A stretch of DNA of 64,000 nt, taken from NCBI RefSeq assembly GCF_007745175.1, contig NZ_CP036271.1, positions 1,632,154 to 1,696,153 on the forward strand. Direction: 5' to 3'. Origin of the DNA: Caulifigura coniformis (GTDB lineage: Bacteria; Planctomycetota; Planctomycetia; Planctomycetales; Planctomycetaceae). The notes below the pieces were generated by a model. That model was not told where the DNA came from, made no database searches, and worked only from the letters and a program-made list of their open reading frames with translations. Positions 21,822 to 31,980 of the stretch are shown one piece after another. The translations under genes were made by a program, and so were the position numbers. Position 1 is the first letter of the stretch, and the number at the start of each line of letters is the position of its first letter.

Positions 21822-22883
21822 TCAGAACTCTCCAACGACCTCGCCGCCGCGTGCCGTAATCAGTGACATCAGGGTCCAGCCACTGATGTTCTGGCTGATG
21901 AAACGAACTGAGCCGTCACAGAGGGCGATCTGCGCTCCCCCTTCGTGCCACGAGTACAGGCCAGCCGTCCGCGAATTCGAGCAATTCACCGCGCACGGAC
22001 CGCCGCTCGGGCTGCTGCCCGACGTCCCGTCATAGCGGCGGCCGTCGATCCAGGTGTCGCCTTGGAACGTATCCGCCCAGGCGCCACTTCCCGTCATCGA
22101 CTGCGCAATCGCTTCGGGATCGCTCATCGGCACCAGGGTCCGGCGACGGTAGAGCTGATTCCGTCCAGCCTGCTCGCCGACGAGAATCGTGTTGCTCGTG
22201 CCGTCGGTGATGTCACGGATCGGGCCCCCCTTCCCCCCCTTCGTCGCGGGCGGGGCATCCGGCACGCTCAGACACCACGTTCCCCATCCCTCGCGAGCCC
22301 CAGCGAAGTTCTGGCCCACAGATGAAAGCTGGTAGAACGCTTCGCGCACTCCGTCGAGAGTCCCGAAGTCACACGCTCCGCCATCCATCGTCCAGGCCGT
22401 CGCCGTCCCCGGATAACCCGATCCCAGGACGGTTCCAGCGGGAACGGTGTATTGCACACGCGGGTTCTGACGTGGAGTCGTCGGGCACACAAACACCGGA
22501 AGAATTGTGCGAATCGCCGGTGCGTTCACCGGATCAAAGAGGCTCCTGTTGCTGTCATAGATGTTGTACACCGGGCCCTGGTCAAGATACGGCAGAAGCA
22601 TCGTCTGCCAGCTCACACCACTCGTCATCTGCAGGCCGGAACCGGCCGTCAGACCCAGGATGGCTGGCTGCGGAAACCGGTTGAACGTGTCGTGGTAATT
22701 GTGGAATCCCAGCCCGATCTGCTTCAGCCCGTTCTTGCACTGCGTCCGCCGGGCCGCCTCACGGGCCTGCTGCACCGCTGGCAAGAGCAGGGCAATCAGG
22801 ATCGCGATGATCGCGATCACCACCAGCAACTCGATCAGCGTAAAGGCCCGGACATTGCGCGAGCGCGCACTCAACTTCCACAT
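21822..22883 (-). CDS. DUF1559 prepilin-like protein
   Basis: A 353-residue protein starting at ATG 22883, with GAGGAGA upstream. Residues 14-30 carry the type-IV prepilin cleavage and helix motif [17 protein letters not shown], followed by [15 protein letters not shown], the start of the DUF1559 domain ([17 protein letters not shown]). The C-terminus has the H-x9-DG motif ([16 protein letters not shown]). These are cell-surface pseudopilin-like proteins expanded in planctomycetes; their role is unproven. Together with the lipoprotein gene it forms a recurrent pair. Confidence 0.93.
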
Positions 22884-23618
22884 CGCAATCTCCTCAGGAA
22901 CCCAGGAAACGTGAATTAACGATGCAACGAAGCAATCGGCCAAGATGGCCCAGCAATTAATTGAAGTGATCCCGCGATCATGCCGCGGATGGCAGCGTTT
23001 GTAAATCCAATTCAGAACGACTTCGCAGCAATTTGATGCGCACCACTGGCAAACTGAACCATTCCTCAGGAACGGCTCGCCCCCGGCACACGCACCAACT
23101 CCACACGGAAAGCACGGCCCACTCCGCTCCGGCCGCAAGGGTATACCACGAATTTCGCCCCGAAGTTCTTTTCTTCCCTCGCCGTTTCTGTAAACCCCTC
23201 GATTCTTTCGCCGCCCGGCGGCCCTGCTTTCGCGTCCTGAGTTCACCGCCACGTTCTTCAGGCCCGTCGCCACACGATGGAAGCGAGGGCGATTGACTTC
23301 CATGATGCTCACTGAGCTGCCCGGCTCTGGAAGTCAAGAGACGACAAGGGGTGGGCGGCCCGGGCAGTTTCCAGACACCCTCGGCCCCACAAGGCTAACC
23401 GGGAACTGCCAACAACCCCGCGTCAATGCATCTACCCAGATCGAGACGCACTTACGACCAGAGGTAGTTTCACAACCCAGTTTTCCCAAGTTCCGGATGC
23501 GTGAAACCTTGGGATATTCACTCACCCGCGCAACTTGCCGGGCCTTTTGAAACTACTTCTACACGTTGCCACCTCGCGTCCCCCCGAACTCCGCACTGCT
23601 ATGCCCGAGGCATTCTCA
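22884..23618. other. Gene-free region with nested inverted repeats
   Basis: No convincing gene in these 735 bases between the DUF1559 gene and the IS element. Between 23461 and 23560 there are overlapping complementary arms: GTAGTTTCA (23464-23472) with TGAAACTAC (23548-23556), GTTTCAC (23467-23473) with GTGAAAC (23501-23507), and CCCAAG (23485-23490) with CTTGGG (23508-23513). These allow alternative RNA folds. The DUF1559 promoter should lie near 22890-23000. Confidence 0.4.
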
Positions 23619-23647
23619 TGACTTGCCCCCGGGGACACTACCACCCT

Positions 23648-24526
23648 CTAAGTTAAAGACTCGCCTGTCAAAGGAACCGCTGCAGAGGCCTGCTGGAGCG
23701 CAGCGGAAGCAGGCCTCTGCAGCGGGCGCACCTCCGGGGCCGGGGGACGATACCCCAAGGAGCTGTGCGGCCTGATCGTGTTGTATTCCACACGCCAGCG
23801 CTCGATCAGCACCTTCGCCTCCAGCAACGTCTCAAAGACTTCCCGTTCAAGCAGCTCATCTCTGAGCTTGCCGTTGAACGACTCCACGTAGCCGTTCTCC
23901 CAAGGACTGCCTGGTTCGATAAACAATGTCTTCACGCGAACTCTCCTGAGCCAATCCTGAACAGCGATGGCCGTGAACTCCGGGCCGTTGTCCGACCGGA
24001 TGTGCCTCGGAACACCTCTCCGGACGAACAGATCGCTGAGACGCTCCAAGACGTCCTCGCTGGTCAGTCTCCGGGCTACATCGATCGCCAGGCACTCCCG
24101 GGTGAACTCGTCAATCACCGTCAGCATCCGGACCGGCCTCCCGTCGTGCGTCCTCGTCTGCACGAAGTCGTAGCTCCAGACGTGATCCCGATGCGCCGGC
24201 CGCAGCCGGACACACGATCCATCGTTGAACCACAGTCGCTTTCGTTTTGGCTGCCGTTTGGGGACCTTCAGGCCTTCCTGCCGCCACAGACGCTCGACCC
24301 GCTTGTGGTTCACCTTCCATCCATCCCTCCGGAGCAAGGCCGTCACCCGGCGATAGCCGTAACGACCGTACTGAGTGGCCAGGGCCACCATGTCCCGGAT
24401 CAGGCGGGGTTCTTCGTCAGGAACGTGGGCCTGGCGGCGTTGGGTGGATCGGAACTGGCCCAGTACACGACAGGCCCGACGCTCTGAGATGTTCTCCGGG
24501 CCCAGCGAATTGCGGACGTAGGTCAC
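23648..24526 (-). CDS. IS3-family transposase OrfB (DDE integrase domain)
   Basis: A 292-residue frame from GTG 24526. It contains the helix-turn-helix-like N-terminus (ISERRACRVLGQFRSTQR, YGRYGYRRVTALL) and the rve integrase core with the three acidic residues in order: WSYDFVQT, RSDNGPEF and GYVESFNGKL. The PHSSLGYRPPAP end is typical of IS3. In vivo it is expected mainly as the C-terminal part of an OrfAB fusion made by the frameshift at 24556-24562, giving about 393 residues; the GTG is a secondary start at best. Confidence 0.92.
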   Translation of the reverse strand: MTYVRNSLGPENISERRACRVLGQFRSTQRRQAHVPDEEPRLIRDMVALATQYGRYGYRRVTALLRRDGWKVNHKRVERLWRQEGLKVPKRQPKRKRLWFNDGSCVRLRPAHRDHVWSYDFVQTRTHDGRPVRMLTVIDEFTRECLAIDVARRLTSEDVLERLSDLFVRRGVPRHIRSDNGPEFTAIAVQDWLRRVRVKTLFIEPGSPWENGYVESFNGKLRDELLEREVFETLLEAKVLIERWRVEYNTIRPHSSLGYRPPAPEVRPLQRPASAALQQASAAVPLTGESLT

Positions 24527-24549
24527 CGCCTGGCGCCGCTTCGCCGGGC

Positions 24550-24828
24550 TCAGAAGTTTCCCGAGGCAGCCTCCCGCAGGATCGCCTTGTCCAACTCAGC
24601 GTCGGCCAGGAGCCGCTTCAGGCGGGCGTTCTCCTTCTCCAGTTCCTTGAGCCGCTTCGCCTGGTCCATCTTCAGACCGCCGTACTCTTTCTTCCAGCGG
24701 TAGTACGTCTGCTCGGTGACACCGATCTTCTTGGCCGCCGCTGCCACCGTGGCTCCCTGAGCGATCTCGACCTCGGCTTCTCGGAGCTTCGGGATGATCT
24801 GCTCGGCGCCAAACCTTTTCCTCGCCAT
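24550..24828 (-). CDS. IS3-family transposase OrfA (HTH_Tnp_1)
   Basis: A 92-residue protein from ATG 24828, with GAGGCAAGGTC upstream. It starts MARKRFGAEQIIPKLREAEV, has the helix-turn-helix unit ATVAAAAKKIGVTEQTYYRW, and then a heptad leucine region (KRLKELEKENARLKRLLADA) that mediates oligomerisation in this family. It ends AASGNF; the same bases in the -1 frame continue into OrfB. OrfA alone usually represses transposition. Confidence 0.92.
   Translation of the reverse strand: MARKRFGAEQIIPKLREAEVEIAQGATVAAAAKKIGVTEQTYYRWKKEYGGLKMDQAKRLKELEKENARLKRLLADAELDKAILREAASGNF
24556..24562 (-). promoter_or_regulatory. Programmed -1 ribosomal frameshift site G-GGA-AAC
   Basis: On the minus strand orfA reads TCG GGA AAC TTC TGA; the heptamer GGGAAAC fits X XXY YYZ with the correct zero frame. 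Slipping back one base yields GGG AAA CTT CTG AGC, which stays open through the orfB frame (the positions agree in register). This would produce the OrfAB transposase, as in most IS3 members. Confidence 0.8.
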
Positions 24829-24909
24829 GACCTTGCCTCCTCCAGGTGAAGGTCCACGTTCGAGGCACAACTTACCCGAACTGTGGACCCGTTGAAGGGG
24901 GGCAGGTCA

Positions 24910-25344: not shown

Positions 25345-26157
25345 ATGGATATGTCAACTCGTGTAACTCGCCGATTGCCAGCCCTTCTGTCCACTATGGC
25401 ACTAGTTGTGCAGTGCTGCACTCCTGCATTTGCGACAAATTTCATAATGAAACGCAAAGTTGGCGGCGGCTGTGGAGCTGGAAAGAGTTTCTATCTCGTC
25501 AGTTCCGGAGGGCCAGATGATGACTGGGGGTATGGCGCGGACCCGACATCACTGCTATACAGTGGTTCCGCAATGACGTCAGGCGTGTTTGGCGACTCCG
25601 CAAACGCGACCGGCAACACATCCTCAACATTATACACGGCGGAGAATGCCTACTCGGGAGCCCCTCAGGCAAATGCTGCTGCAATCCTCAACGGTCAAGT
25701 CGAGGCAACACCCGAGTCTGGGCCATATCTAGAGACGTACATCTCCACTAGTGCAAATGCCGACTACCTAATCGACGATTGCCCAGAGACGACTGGACAG
25801 CTGACTGCCAAGCTTTCAATCTTTGTGTCGAGTCCCTCGACGTATCCTTGGACAAGCACTGGCCACGCAAACGCTTCTGCCGGCGGGTCGTCCATCGACG
25901 CACTAGCCATGAACGGCAGTGTCCAAGTCCTGGGCTCACTCCAGAACAACGGAGGCTCGCCGACGACGATCGACTACGTGGAGCCCGGGGACAGCTATGC
26001 ATCCGGCCAGCGAGTCGGAACTGAGCACGTCAACTGTGGGGCGTCGGTTCAAATATCGGTTGCAACCGACTGCTCAGCAATCGACTACCCGCAAGACGAC
26101 GGTGTTATTATCGTCAACACTACCGCCCATGCCTCTTTCGAGGTTGAGACTTACTGA
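25345..26157 (+). CDS. Secreted protein of unknown function in a low-GC segment
   Basis: A 270-residue protein starting ATG 25345 (or ATG 25351), with a signal peptide (RLPALLSTMALVVQCCTPAF, cleavage after AFA near residue 31). The mature part is rich in Ser, Thr, Gly, Asn, Ala and acidic residues with no long helix, which suggests a beta-sandwich; four cysteines are spread through it. No family recognised. Codon use (AAT, ACA, GTT and so on) differs from the GC-rich neighbours. It is 44 bases upstream of the next gene on the same strand, so the pair may be one transcription unit. Confidence 0.65.
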   Translation: MDMSTRVTRRLPALLSTMALVVQCCTPAFATNFIMKRKVGGGCGAGKSFYLVSSGGPDDDWGYGADPTSLLYSGSAMTSGVFGDSANATGNTSSTLYTAENAYSGAPQANAAAILNGQVEATPESGPYLETYISTSANADYLIDDCPETTGQLTAKLSIFVSSPSTYPWTSTGHANASAGGSSIDALAMNGSVQVLGSLQNNGGSPTTIDYVEPGDSYASGQRVGTEHVNCGASVQISVATDCSAIDYPQDDGVIIVNTTAHASFEVETY

Positions 26158-26201
26158 CTAGTAGTCTTCGGCGATCCTGCTTCGTCGTACGCACCCCACA
26201 G

Positions 26202-27950
26202 ATGCCTACGGCGAAGCACTCTTTACAACCACCTAGCGATTCTGCATCACACTTTCCGGATAGGCTAATGGGACCGTTTGCCTCGCTCTTGGCGTCATCT
26301 GCGGTTTGCGCTGTCGGCACCATTTGGGGCGCAAACTTGTCGCAATTCAGTTCGCAGTTGGTCAAGGCCTGCCACGAGAGCATAACATCGGAGTACCGCA
26401 AATCTGTTTCGCAGGCGATGCGCCACCCAGCGAGAATTGACAAGGCAATGATATCGGCGAAAAGACGGCGGGACTTTGCACTACAAGTTCTCCTGCTTGC
26501 AGGTTCACCACAGACATCTCATTGGCACGATTACGACGCTCTTGTCGCCCTAGCAAAGTCGGCAGAATCCGTGCGACAACACAAAGACACCTCGCGCCTC
26601 GCTCAACTCGCAATTTCAATAGATCCGTCGCGACCAGACGCCTATGAAATATTTGGAATAAGCCTACTAAACACACACAAGCACGAACATCTAAGCGAAT
26701 TGCTGAACGAGATTGATAAACAATTTGACACACTGAACACTTCACGATCTCTTTATGTCCTTGCCTTTAGACAAGCGATTCATCACAAGAGATTCGATTC
26801 CGCATTGGCGTTCAGCGACAAAGCTGCCGAACATGTCTTTGCTGCAGCCGAGACATCCGACGCCGCCGTCCGAGTGGCAGTGCATTTCTTTCGCGAGTGG
26901 GTCCCATTCTGTGCCGTTCACGAGGCAAACTGGGACGCCGAGCATTCAATGGCACGACACGCTTCACAGCTTAAACGAGGTTTCCAACGTCAGCACGCAC
27001 AAATTACGAAGTCAAAGAACGTTGACGAAGCACTTGATACATTTTTCAAGTGCATCAGGATTCACATTCTCCTCCGAAATGTTGTGCGATTGAGTCGCCC
27101 GGAATCACTTCCCACAGAGTACTCAAATGTTCTGGCGACTTATGGCGATGCATTAATGCGCCAAGTTGATGCCGCAATCATCGCGGAAGGGCTGAAAGCA
27201 GAGCTTCGGGTGATGAAAGAAGATTCGTGCTTCTGGGAGAATTCGGAGGAGATCGTCGCGGCCTGCCAGACTTTGTCAACGAAGGCGAGGTCGCTGAATA
27301 GCCAAAGTGATGGAGTCGAAAAGGTGATAACTGCGACATCACGAATCGAAGAGTTTCTTCGACTGCACAGAACGTTGCATCGTTGTATCGGCCGCCCCAT
27401 GCCAAGTCTAAACAATGTCAAATGGAGTCGCCGAGCTTGTGAGTGGGGACCGGTCCGGGGGAGGATTCAGCCATCGGTCGTTGCACTCATACCGGCATCA
27501 AGAGTGTCACACTTGGACCTGAAGGCTCTTCGGACGCTGCTGCAACGATGGAGTGTCGACGGCAATACCGACCTTGCAATCATAGTTGTCGGTTCAGATT
27601 TGATTCAGAATGGGCAACTCGCGGAAGCAAGCAGTAGGATATTGTTTGCCGAGAACGATACTCGATGGAGCGTTGGTGAGGGAAATGCAAGTGAGTGGAT
27701 GGACGAATTGGGATTCGAACAAGCGTATGCAGACGCCATGCTACTAATTGGTGATCGTGATGGAAACATGCGGACGGGAGCCATAGGTATTGGTGAGCAG
27801 GCCGTATTTCATGCAGAGTGCGTTCTACGAGAGATAAGGGCGAGTGAGGAAGATGCCGATTTCTTTCTTTCACCGGTGTTGCCAGGATTTAGGAGAGATC
27901 GAGACAGGGAGGTTGACGGCGAGCCCGTTTACAGGGCCATCGGCCGTTGA
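26202..27950 (+). CDS. Unknown protein, N-terminal hydrophobic helix and helical-repeat body, low-GC segment
   Basis: A 582-residue frame from ATG 26202 (ATG 26268 also possible). Residues near 23-45 (MGPFASLLASSAVCAVGTIW) form a hydrophobic segment; residues about 110-260 look like helical hairpins similar to TPR (LAQLAISIDPSRPDAYEIFG), and the C-terminal 150 residues alternate alpha/beta (VVALIPASRVSHLDLKALRT, LAIIVVGSDLIQNGQLAEAS). I recognise no family. GC is far below that of the neighbours. The last 22 bases overlap the convergent hydrolase gene and the final residues change character, so the original C-terminus may have been lost at the junction. Confidence 0.6.
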   Translation: MPTAKHSLQPPSDSASHFPDRLMGPFASLLASSAVCAVGTIWGANLSQFSSQLVKACHESITSEYRKSVSQAMRHPARIDKAMISAKRRRDFALQVLLLAGSPQTSHWHDYDALVALAKSAESVRQHKDTSRLAQLAISIDPSRPDAYEIFGISLLNTHKHEHLSELLNEIDKQFDTLNTSRSLYVLAFRQAIHHKRFDSALAFSDKAAEHVFAAAETSDAAVRVAVHFFREWVPFCAVHEANWDAEHSMARHASQLKRGFQRQHAQITKSKNVDEALDTFFKCIRIHILLRNVVRLSRPESLPTEYSNVLATYGDALMRQVDAAIIAEGLKAELRVMKEDSCFWENSEEIVAACQTLSTKARSLNSQSDGVEKVITATSRIEEFLRLHRTLHRCIGRPMPSLNNVKWSRRACEWGPVRGRIQPSVVALIPASRVSHLDLKALRTLLQRWSVDGNTDLAIIVVGSDLIQNGQLAEASSRILFAENDTRWSVGEGNASEWMDELGFEQAYADAMLLIGDRDGNMRTGAIGIGEQAVFHAECVLREIRASEEDADFFLSPVLPGFRRDRDREVDGEPVYRAIGR

Positions 27951-28810
27951 CTCGGGTGCCTCAGGTACTTGTCGAAGAAACCCAGCACGACCGGCCTCAG
28001 GTCGCGCTGCTTCGGCTGCAGATGAAACGTGTGCGGGGCGTCCGGAATGATCACCAGCTCATTCACCACACCCGCCTTCGTCAGGGCCTCCGCAAACACC
28101 TCCGAATCCTTCACGTCGACCGTCGTGTCCGCCGTCCCGTGCAGGATCAGCACCGGCGGGTCGTTCTTGTCCAGGTGCGACAGCGGCGTGATCTGACGCG
28201 TCAGCTCCTCCGCCTTCGGATTCTTCGGATCGACCAGCGTCTGGATCCGCTTCAGGCTGTCAGCCATCGGCCCGTACATGTCGATCACCGCCTGCACGGC
28301 ACACGACTGCTCTCCATACGGCCCCGTGGGATCGAGCCCGTCTTTCGCCCCCGTCACCCCCACCATCGCTGCCAAGTGTCCACCGGCCGATCCCCCGATC
28401 ACGCCGATGTGTTCCACGTCGATCTGATACTTCTCCGCGTGCGCCCGCAGCCAGCGGACCGCCGTCTTGCAGTCGTGCACGTTCTGCGGCCAGATCTTCG
28501 GCCCCTCCTTCGTCTGCAGCATGTAGTCGATGCTCAGCCCCACGTAACCGTTCTCGGCCAGTGTCGTTCCGATGTTGATTTCACGCTTGGCGTCGCGGAC
28601 TCCCCCCACCCACCCGCCGCCGTGAATGATCACCACACCCGGACGCTTCTCACCCGGCTTCGCTTCGGCCGGGAGATACAGGTCGGCCAGCTCCTTCCGG
28701 TCGCCGCCAAGGTACGGAATGTTCTTCTCGATCCGGACTTCCGCCTGCAGCGGAGACGCCGCCACGGCTGCGACGGCACAACAGGCGAGAAAACGAGCGG
28801 TCATCAACAT
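27929..28810 (-). CDS. Secreted alpha/beta hydrolase (HGGGW-type esterase)
   Basis: A 293-residue protein with a signal peptide (MLMTARFLACCAVAAVAASP, then LQA). Hallmarks of the BD-FAE / hormone-sensitive-lipase-like esterases are the oxyanion motif IHGGGWVGG, the nucleophile GGSAGGHLA, the acid in LHGTADTTVD and the base in APHTFHL. Expected to be a carbohydrate esterase or lipase; substrate unknown. ATG 28810 is the most likely start; 28804 is equally possible. The stop TAA (27931-27929) lies inside the end of the convergent low-GC gene. Confidence 0.85.
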   Translation of the reverse strand: MLMTARFLACCAVAAVAASPLQAEVRIEKNIPYLGGDRKELADLYLPAEAKPGEKRPGVVIIHGGGWVGGVRDAKREINIGTTLAENGYVGLSIDYMLQTKEGPKIWPQNVHDCKTAVRWLRAHAEKYQIDVEHIGVIGGSAGGHLAAMVGVTGAKDGLDPTGPYGEQSCAVQAVIDMYGPMADSLKRIQTLVDPKNPKAEELTRQITPLSHLDKNDPPVLILHGTADTTVDVKDSEVFAEALTKAGVVNELVIIPDAPHTFHLQPKQRDLRPVVLGFFDKYLRHPSQRPMAL

Positions 28811-29023
28811 GGCGCACCACGGCTGAAACAGGGAAGTCAATTTCACGCAGCGATCATGCAGCAAGACCAGCCGCCGCACAATTCAGCCACCGTAATCGCA
28901 ACACGCCCTCCCTCTCCCCGCACTCGACTCACCTGCTCCTGCCGCCAGCGTCGGGGAGAGGGGCCAGACCAAACACCCCACCGCGCCCGGAGCACCGAGC
29001 CCCGACAGAGTCGGTACTTCTCA

Positions 29024-29155
29024 GATCACGTTCCAGTCACGCGGATCGAGAAATGCGCGGAGCCTTCTGAGGGGCGTCGTGACCAGGAACCCAGCGTCCT
29101 TAAGTGAGCGGCAAGGCGCTAGCCGCCGGTCCGATATACCATCGACAGTCCAAGG
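29024..29155. repeat. Dispersed intergenic repeat family A, copy 3
   Basis: The core at 29104-29131 is identical to the copies at 4728 and 18194 except for one flanking position, followed by CGATATACCATCG (copy 2 has CGATAAACCATCG). The upstream stretch CACGTTCCAGTCAC, GGATCGAGAAATGCG matches 18145-18175. Downstream similarity fades after 29155. Confidence 0.83.
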
Positions 29156-29498
29156 CCCAAAATGCCCGGCTTCTCCCCACAACACGCCCCGCGCCTTCAA
29201 GTTCCGCCCGGATCTCCATCAGCCTCGTGACCAAGGTCCCCCTTGGTCACGCACCCTCAGCGAAGCTCCGCTTCGCGTTGCCGAGCCCCCATTCCCTTCG
29301 ACTCGGTGCGATACGCCGCCACTGCGGAAGGGCTCCGTTTCAGCAAGACTCCTTCCTCCTCTCCTGAAAAAAGTCCCTCGCATCAACGAGCTTTCATGCT
29401 TCAGGGCGAAAGCATTTCATGGAGAGTCCTGTTCCACCTCAATCCCCAACGCGCGACCGACCTCCCTGTCGCGCGTCAAAAAAACGCCCCCATTTTTC

Positions 29499-29690
29499 GC
29501 GCAACCACCCACGCCATGGTGGAGGACCATGCATGAACACGACCACGGCACACATCAAACCCCACGGAGCCGGCATGCGGCGACAACCGCTCCCCGGACG
29601 CAGTCACCGTCCTGTCCGCCGGGGGAGGGGGGAGGGGGGCAAGGAGTACGCAACCACCCACATCAGCGCCCTCCTCGCTCGCTCGCGATC
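29499..29690. repeat. Dispersed intergenic repeat family C, copy 1
   Basis: Starts GCGCAACCACCCACGCCATG then GTGGAGGACCATG, and later has AAGGAGTACGCAACCACCCA followed by CAGCGCCCTCCTCGC. The same order of blocks occurs at 45275-45465. Between the blocks the sequences diverge. In both copies a strong GGTGGAGGAC site precedes an ATG reading MNxTT, but the following frames do not match, so a coding role is doubtful. Confidence 0.65.
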
Positions 29691-29809
29691 CGGCAGCGTC
29701 GGACAGTCCGCCGCGGGGCGGCCTGGAGGGACTGTCGGTTGCTTGCGGGCATCCAGACGCAAACCGACAATCGCCGCACGCCACTTCGCTCACCCCCAAA
29801 GGCCATTAC

Positions 29810-30867: not shown

Positions 30868-31980
30868 CTATTTCATTTCAGCCTTCGCCGCTTCATACCG
30901 CTTCAGCGCCTCCACGATCTCCGGATGCTCGGCCGCGGCCACGGCCTTCTTCGACCACGCAATCGCTTCGTCCAGGTTCCCCTGCTCGAAGTAAACCCGG
31001 GCCAGCGTATCCATCACCGCCCCGTCCTTTTCCATCGTCAGTTCCACCGCCCGCTTCGCGGCCTTGAGCGCCGTGTCGAGGGTTCCCGGATAAGTCTGTT
31101 CAGCCGCGATTCCCCAGCTCAGATCGTTCAGCAGTTGCGGCGAATCCCGGAACGTCTTCGTCGCCAGCATGTCCGCATACTGGTTCGCCTCATCCATGTT
31201 CTCGCGGTTGCCCAGCAGCTGGAGTTTGACCAATCCGACCTGGAGCGCCTTCGGCTGGCTGGCCATCAGGTCATCCACCGCTTTGATGGCCGCATCGATG
31301 TTGTCGGAAGCCAGAGCCTGACGAATCTCCCGCTGCGCCTTCATCATCGCCAGCATCTGCTGCCGCGCCTCTTCCCGTTCTTTCCGGGCGACGGTCCGGT
31401 CCCACGTGCCATCGACAACTTTCGCCAGCGGCTCATCCATCCGTGCGGGGTGGCCGATCCATTCAACCACCCCTTCCCTTCCCACGATGAACGCCGTCGG
31501 AATTCCCCGCTCGCCCGCGGCCGACATGTAGGCTTCGTTGGTTTTCCCATCAACGTCCATCGCCAGCCGGTACGTGATGGTCGCGTCCCAGGTGACCCCT
31601 TCCTTCTGCTCGTCCTTCAGGAAGTCCGCCACCTTGGAGGTCTCTTCCGTGCTCACGCCGATCATCTGCGCCTTGTCGCCGTACTTCGTCTGCAGCTCGG
31701 CCAGGTGAGGCATGGTGGCCAGGCACGGCCCGCACCATGTCGCCCAGAACTCGACGACATAAACCTGCCCCGGCTTGAATCCGTCGACTTTCTCCCCCTT
31801 CACCCAGTCGCTGATGGCGAGCGCCGGCGCCGGAGAGCCGATGTCGAGCCGTGGTCCTTCATCCGGTGATGGAGCCTTTTCGAGCTTCGGAAGCTCGAGA
31901 TCCTGCTGCGCCGCGAGCGGAAACGTACAGGCCGCAGAAAACAGGAGAGTGAAAGCCGTCCGCCAGAATCGTGTCGCCAT
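30868..31980 (-). CDS. TlpA-like thioredoxin with C-terminal TPR region, exported
   Basis: A 370-residue protein with a signal peptide (RTAFTLLFSAACTFPLAA). The thioredoxin/AhpC-TSA domain spans about residues 45-190 with the redox site WCGPC (Cys83, Cys86) after VVEFWAT and the cis-Pro segment RGIPTAFIVG. Residues from about 215 are helical (ALASDNIDAAIKAVDDLMA, MDTLARVYFEQGNLDEAIAW) in TPR style. It probably reduces disulfides in exported proteins; planctomycetes have several such fusions. Convergent with the esterase gene. Confidence 0.88.
   Translation of the reverse strand: MATRFWRTAFTLLFSAACTFPLAAQQDLELPKLEKAPSPDEGPRLDIGSPAPALAISDWVKGEKVDGFKPGQVYVVEFWATWCGPCLATMPHLAELQTKYGDKAQMIGVSTEETSKVADFLKDEQKEGVTWDATITYRLAMDVDGKTNEAYMSAAGERGIPTAFIVGREGVVEWIGHPARMDEPLAKVVDGTWDRTVARKEREEARQQMLAMMKAQREIRQALASDNIDAAIKAVDDLMASQPKALQVGLVKLQLLGNRENMDEANQYADMLATKTFRDSPQLLNDLSWGIAAEQTYPGTLDTALKAAKRAVELTMEKDGAVMDTLARVYFEQGNLDEAIAWSKKAVAAAEHPEIVEALKRYEAAKAEMK

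What the first reader, a model, noticed from the sequence alone, without database searches (positions are those of the whole stretch)
25345..27950. Low-GC pair of unrecognised genes beside an IS3 element
The secreted protein and the helical-repeat protein are visibly AT-richer than everything around them and match no family I know. They are on one strand 44 bases apart, adjoin an insertion sequence, and end at a junction with a native hydrolase gene. This looks like a small acquired module. Possible roles include a surface or secretion pair, or a contact-dependent or defence-type module; none is demonstrated.
Basis: partly seen in the sequence, partly recalled or inferred. Interest (0 to 1): 0.62.

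Follow-up and report, generated by a model that had tools for sequence, protein, structure and literature searches.

The report
Rare exported two-gene cassette in planctomycetes
Two neighbouring bacterial genes that match no known family look like a foreign, rarely seen cassette making two exported proteins, and a similar pair turns up in a few other planctomycetes, though what it does is still a guess.

Summary
The segment 25345-27950 is 52.9% G+C, lower than all 1740 overlapping same-size windows from 400 kb of the genome (mean 63.2%). Neither protein has a convincing match in Pfam, NCBIfam, PHROGs, PADLOC-DB or the PDB. The genome length equals that of Caulifigura coniformis Pan44.

New here: the pair recurs. 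P0002's one relative in 170 family genomes (G446), and two more from a profile search of 397 class genomes (G505, G428), also have an exported ~280-aa S/T/G-rich protein encoded upstream on the same strand. In G446 and G505 the genes are adjacent; in G428 a transposase remnant lies between. G546 is a candidate only.

The evidence rests on gene order. TPR-type similarity alone is unspecific (four-row profile: 262 of 397 genomes); 1 of 39 other resolved TPR matches has a similar upstream gene. The first proteins resemble each other weakly.

Best reading: a laterally moving surface cassette, an exported beta-rich protein plus an exported helical-repeat partner; function is inferred. The IS3 element is a multi-copy insertion 435 bp upstream. 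Defence, toxin-immunity and thioredoxin readings gained no support.

The parts
25345..26157 (+). Gene 1: exported 270-aa protein; hydrophobic N-terminus, S/T/G/A-rich, six Cys (two in the leader), beta strands predicted at very low confidence
   Evidence: similarity of its C-terminal part to the other first proteins: 1 of 60 decoys scored as high, but 15 of 40 shuffles in an earlier test without the fifth protein
26202..27950 (+). Gene 2: helical-repeat (TPR-like) protein, 582 aa as listed; probable start at 26268 (560 aa, signal-like N-terminus)
   Evidence: relatives
27369..27947 (+). C-terminal extension of gene 2 (about residues 390-582), without counterpart in the complete relatives in G505 and G428; alpha/beta at very low confidence, family unknown
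   Evidence: thioredoxin-like idea tested and not supported
26178..26218 (+). Inverted repeat with 16-nt arms and a 9-nt loop in the spacer, followed by CTCTTT; perhaps a leaky terminator
   Evidence: hairpins at the same place in G446 and G505; background 7 of 37 spacers; the terminator scan did not list it
23618..24909 (-). IS3-type insertion sequence (two transposase ORFs), multi-copy, in the lowish-GC spacer left of the pair
27929..28879 (-). Convergent alpha/beta-hydrolase gene (Pfam BD-FAE), normal composition; right edge of the low-GC segment

Best explanation
An acquired two-gene cassette found sporadically in the class to which this genome belongs. Gene 1 makes a small exported, probably beta-rich protein that is displayed on, or released from, the cell surface and evolves fast. 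Gene 2 makes an exported helical-repeat (TPR-like) protein that most likely binds the first protein in the periplasm or at the surface and helps to assemble or anchor it. The hairpin in the spacer may let more of gene 1 than of gene 2 be expressed. Shown: low G+C, lack of family matches, export-like N-termini, repeated gene order, rare occurrence. Inferred: common descent of the first proteins, binding between the two, surface location, unequal expression, benefit to the cell.
For: P0002's only match besides itself at E <= 0.01 in 170 family genomes is G446 (E 8.9e-5); the reverse search over the same 170 finds only itself and the window (E 4.8e-5); 0 of 100 shuffles reach the alignment score. 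G446 has a 276-aa exported protein ending 109 bp upstream on the same strand in a low-GC patch (0.454 against 0.592). A two-row profile in 397 class genomes (8 with a match at E <= 0.01, the window's genome and G446 among them) then gave G505 (7.2e-8) and G428 (1.9e-6), with exported first proteins of 278 aa and 300 aa as listed; in G428 an IS200-type transposase remnant lies between the genes. Background for such an arrangement: 3 of 103 gene-like ORFs of 350-620 aa in sampled stretches of the own genome, 1 of 103 with both leaders, and 1 of 39 resolved loci among 41 other TPR matches; the size and distance limits of both counts were set after seeing the pairs. First proteins: leave-one-out profile scores are reached by 1, 0, 0, 1 and 8 of 60 decoys for window, G446, G505, G428 and G546. 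Spacer hairpins in the window, G446 and G505.
Against: TPR-type similarity is promiscuous: the four-row profile matched 262 of 397 genomes at E <= 0.1, some at 1e-7 to 1e-9 without such a partner; P0002 alone did not find G428 although it lies in the same 170-genome family set, and P0002 and the G505 protein show no pairwise BLAST similarity (E 1.5-2.4). P0001 and P0003 show none either (92 of 100 shuffles score as high), and P0001 failed the first profile test (15 of 40 shuffles). Hairpins as strong follow 53 of 242 genes in this genome, are absent from G546 and G428, and the G446 one is reached by 14 of 200 shuffles; the terminator scan did not list the window one. Low G+C is strong only in the window, G446 and G546, and modest in G505 and G428. 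Both folds were predicted at very low confidence. No data bear on interaction or location.
Confidence: 0.42

Rival explanations
1. The second proteins are generic exported TPR proteins and the matching gene order is coincidence; the window merely holds two unrelated acquired orphan genes.
For: Generic TPR matches are frequent; the first proteins lack significant pairwise similarity; the window protein failed one profile test; of the complete second proteins read only the window one has the C-terminal extension.
Against: The arrangement is rare in the background (3 of 103, 1 of 103 with leaders) and at other TPR matches (1 of 39 resolved), yet G446 and G505 both have it, with near-equal first-protein sizes (270, 276, 278 aa) and, from inferred starts, near-equal spacers (110, 109, 112 bp).
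Confidence: 0.3
2. A conflict module: gene 1 is an exported effector or toxin against neighbours, gene 2 its exported immunity or delivery partner.
For: Rapid divergence, sporadic and partly low-GC occurrence; a SIR2-like gene lies about 3 kb from the G505 pair.
Against: No PADLOC, Pfam or NCBIfam match to a toxin, immunity or delivery family; in the complete loci gene 2 (376-582 aa) is larger than a usual immunity protein (recalled).
Confidence: 0.12
3. Gene 2 is a helical-repeat protein with a C-terminal thioredoxin-like domain that has lost its cysteines, and the pair serves envelope redox or folding.
For: Predicted strand/helix order of residues 427-571 (very low confidence) and the LIGDRDGNM / LIGKDGNV register in the profile alignment; redoxin-type domains without a CxxC occur in this genome (L064, L067).
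Against: 13 of 60 shuffles score as high in local mode and 41 of 60 in global mode; a thinner profile also failed; no Pfam match for the domain alone; G505 and G428 lack it.
Confidence: 0.1

Closest known systems
Exported TPR (tetratricopeptide) repeat proteins
   Same: Predicted all-helical after a signal-like N-terminus; weak TPR matches in the G428 and G505 second proteins (best E 2.3e-4); weak Foldseek similarity to TPR domains among other helical proteins, none at E <= 0.001
   Different: The window protein itself gives no TPR match in Pfam and carries an extra C-terminal part
Secreted Ser/Thr/Gly-rich beta-sandwich surface proteins (recalled as a general class)
   Same: Leader peptide, composition, strands predicted at very low confidence
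   Different: No match to any family searched; no anchor motif identified
IS3 family insertion sequences
   Same: The element at 23618-24909: two ORFs with HTH_Tnp_1 and rve domains
   Different: No target duplication seen next to it; the two identical copies show none either (by eye)

Membership tests
TPR protein (second gene) | Pfam TPR model above its cut-off | tested here: not met
   Window protein: no TPR match. G428: TPR_19 at 18.2 bits, cut-off 25; G505: weak matches whose bits were not shown; G446: ANAPC3 at 14.3 bits, cut-off 27.2
TPR protein (second gene) | Arrays of paired helices | tested here: inconclusive
   Helices in most of residues 51-395, but mean pLDDT 42; mainly blocks in 121-270 reach 50-73; Foldseek best E 0.005
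Laterally acquired module | Composition outside the host's range | tested here: met
   0 of 1740 windows as low
Laterally acquired module | Absent from close relatives at a defined empty site | tested here: inconclusive
   No match in G087, the only other held species of the genus, but no local synteny to define the site
Anti-phage defence system | Match to a known defence protein model | tested here: not met
   0 families in PADLOC-DB for either protein
Thioredoxin-like / redoxin domain (C-terminus of gene 2) | Profile similarity above shuffled controls | tested here: not met
   13 of 60 shuffles reach the local score
Thioredoxin-like / redoxin domain (C-terminus of gene 2) | CxxC active site | tested here: not met
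   Cysteines of that part are at 395, 413 and 540 only
Contact-dependent toxin-immunity pair | Recognisable delivery, toxin or immunity domain | tested here: not met
   None by Pfam or NCBIfam
Contact-dependent toxin-immunity pair | Toxicity relieved by the partner | not testable with these tools
   Needs an experiment

The most novel reading that the evidence does not exclude
An undescribed family of laterally moving surface cassettes in planctomycetes: an exported, fast-evolving beta-rich protein and an exported helical-repeat assembly partner, kept in fixed order, often with a hairpin in the spacer, although the first protein diverges almost beyond recognition, as expected for a recognition or adhesion system.
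Probability: 0.3. Interest if true: 0.6.

Novelty: new variant of a known kind. Interest (0 to 1): 0.42.

Why it matters
Planctomycete cell surfaces and their many orphan genes are poorly understood (recalled). If the cassette is real, it turns two orphan genes into a recurring unit with a testable partner relation, and gives a handle for finding members that sequence search alone misses because the first protein diverges so fast. Two topic searches of the paper library returned 1 and 3 papers (listings only), none of which, by title and abstract start, describes such a pair; this is a thin search and no proof that it is unpublished.

Tried and rejected
Weak hits: L002 (P0002, E 6.8e-4) reads like a generic TPR protein; L004 (P0001, E 2.1e-4) lies in a short alternative frame overlapping longer ORFs and looks spurious. 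Of the 8 genomes matched by the two-row profile, G649, G152, G497 and G442 were read and dropped: no secreted gene of that size directly upstream. Of the 26 loci L111-L136 a first look was faulty: in about eight the upstream side lay outside the fetched stretch, and in a few the wrong frame was taken. I fetched larger stretches for 40 matches and, with G546, re-read 41 of the first 43 matches listed after the four known loci (G497 and G619 left out): 39 resolved, 1 with a 240-330 aa leader-like ORF within 150 bp upstream (G525, L164; its own gene is 1338 aa and of normal G+C), 2 unresolved. G546 does not meet the size limit of that count (671 aa). A low-GC neighbour pair in G500 turned out to be two TPR genes.

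Close relatives in genome contigs: none for P0002 and none for the G428/G505 alignment. Viral contigs: none for P0002 or P0001. Plasmids: none for P0002, P0001 or the G505 second protein. Phages: none for P0002. In whole genomes P0001 was searched in the 294 phylum genomes only, not in the family or class sets. Structure: both single-sequence models are too poor to use; Foldseek on the second gave no match at E <= 0.001. A PDB match of P0001 to a RecA chain (E 1.6e-5) has no stretch that passes on its own and was set aside as an artefact. No Rfam match, no tandem repeat, no consensus promoter in the stretches scanned; three terminator-like sites, all on the minus strand. The thioredoxin idea failed with a 4-sequence and a 14-sequence profile. 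First-protein homology: with shuffles as controls 15, 1, 0 and 1 of 40 for window, G446, G505, G428; with 60 decoys (the most S/T/G/A/N-rich of 181), C-terminal parts and a fifth protein 1, 0, 0, 1 and 8 of 60, G546 last. The motif tried was made after looking, and fits 3 of the 4 proteins.

Full report
What was checked. The segment is lower in G+C than every one of 1740 overlapping windows from 400 kb of the same chromosome. In 200-bp steps G+C stays at or below 0.60 from 24910 to about 27900 and returns to 0.62-0.67 from 27910 on; the spacer to the left of the IS is lowish too (0.58). The second frame is clearly longer than chance; the first is not beyond chance by length alone (11 of 500 shuffles), and its standing as a gene rests mainly on its leader peptide and on the relatives.

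Where it is. The chromosome has 6,761,146 bases in one contig, the length given for Caulifigura coniformis Pan44 (PMC7717036, four passages seen); this identification rests on length and G+C. The other held species of the genus, G087, has no match to the second protein or the first at the thresholds used. DNA from both flanks of the segment matches scattered places in G087, so an empty site could not be defined.

The insertion sequence. An IS3-type element occupies 23618-24909. Two further full-length copies in the genome are reported as 100% identical, three more as 88% identical, and others are partial. No flanking duplication is seen here or at the two identical copies. It lies 435 bp before gene 1 and looks like a separate, recent insertion in a spacer.

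No known family. Neither protein has a match above a curated cut-off in Pfam or NCBIfam, any match in PADLOC-DB, or a better PHROGs match than E 0.14. PDB sequences gave nothing for the second protein and only a RecA artefact and a chance-level hit for the first. Single-sequence AlphaFold models are poor (mean pLDDT 32 and 42); the second shows helices over most of residues 51-395 and an alpha/beta end.

The pair elsewhere. Among 294 phylum genomes P0002 matched, at E <= 0.001, only its own genome and one generic TPR protein. Among 170 genomes of the family it matched, at E <= 0.01, its own and G446. In G446 the matching gene, cut by the contig end, starts with a leader peptide and is preceded, on the same strand, by a gene for a 276-aa exported protein. 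The reverse search over the same 170 genomes returned only itself and the window. A profile of the two, run on 397 class genomes, matched 8 at E <= 0.01. Two are the starting loci. The other six were read. G505, of another family, has a 278-aa exported protein ending 70 bp before the 376-aa second ORF. G428, of the window's family, has a 300-aa exported protein (about 280 from the likelier start) upstream of a 420-aa second ORF, with 1.8 kb between them that holds an IS200-type transposase remnant, and a DDE_3 transposase ORF on the far side. The remaining four have no such partner. G428 was in the 170-genome family set but was missed by P0002 alone.

How far this can be trusted. Adding G505 and G428 to the profile made it match 262 of 397 genomes at E <= 0.1, so similarity of helical repeats proves little by itself. 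I therefore used gene order as the test, with size and distance limits that were set after seeing the pairs. In 20 sampled stretches of the window's own genome, 3 of 103 gene-like ORFs of 350-620 aa have a 240-330 aa ORF within 150 bp upstream on the same strand, 1 of 103 with both leader-like (the leader score is a crude hydropathy measure, and P0002 itself falls just under the limit used, 1.99 against 2.0). Among 41 of the next 43 matches of the four-row profile, 39 could be resolved and 1 has a leader-like 240-330 aa ORF there; this replaces a faulty first count. One of the 39, G546, has a longer exported protein (671 aa as listed, with glutamate runs) 45 bp upstream of a 423-aa second protein. 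That pair lies in a patch of about 0.49-0.57 G+C in a neighbourhood of 0.61-0.74. G546 is kept as a candidate only, because its TPR match lies in the generic range and its first protein failed the decoy test (8 of 60). For the other first proteins, leave-one-out profile scores are reached by 0 or 1 of 60 decoys. An earlier test with shuffles gave 15, 1, 0 and 1 of 40 for window, G446, G505 and G428, and the direct window-G446 comparison was negative. I read this as weak support for common descent of the first proteins, weakest for the window's own.

The spacer. With Met23 as start, the window spacer is 110 bp; in G446 it is 109, in G505 112 counted to the Met before its leader. All three contain a hairpin with 16-18 nt arms some 20-64 nt after the first stop codon, followed by CTCTTT or a run of T. 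The sequences differ. Shuffles reach the arm score in 0, 14 and 1 of 200 for window, G446 and G505. In this genome 7 of 37 same-strand spacers of 60-200 nt and 53 of 242 gene ends have hairpins as strong, G546 and G428 lack one, and the terminator scan did not list the window hairpin. The feature is suggestive only. Its plain reading would be a leaky terminator that favours gene 1.

The extension. Residues 390-582 of P0002 have no counterpart in G505 or G428; the G446 gene is incomplete. I suspected a thioredoxin-like domain without cysteines; the alignment register fits, but shuffled sequences score as high too often (13 of 60). It stays unassigned.

Mechanism. Both proteins of the window, G446, G505 and G428 appear to be exported, judged by eye from their N-termini. 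The most economical idea is an exported beta-rich protein with a helical-repeat partner that binds it during assembly or anchoring. Rapid change of the first protein, rare occurrence and the low G+C of some loci fit a surface trait under diversifying pressure that moves between lineages. Nothing here shows binding or location.

Verdict. The new element is that the pair recurs. Interest is moderate: a plausible new cassette with weak functional evidence.

Noticed in passing
window 29103-29200, 29223-29296, 29498-29546, 29596-29696: Short stretches (about 28-100 bp) recur at many places of the chromosome (most of the 49 own-genome matches, self-match included), apparently interspersed REP- or MITE-like repeats.
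   Followed up: no
window 30868-31980 (-): Redoxin domain with weak TPR matches behind it; some related domains elsewhere in the genome have lost the CxxC motif (L064, L067).
   Followed up: partly
window about 21822-22900 (-): A gene with the prepilin-like leader typical of planctomycete DUF1559 proteins (label recalled; the scan failed on a frame error); a part of about 180 bp matches dozens of places in related genomes.
   Followed up: no
L138:542-1945: SIR2-like gene (Pfam SIR2_2) about 3 kb upstream of the G505 pair.
   Followed up: partly
L137:7678-8454 (+): A low-GC gene with a putative zinc protease domain (PF05618), divergent from the G546 candidate pair.
   Followed up: partly
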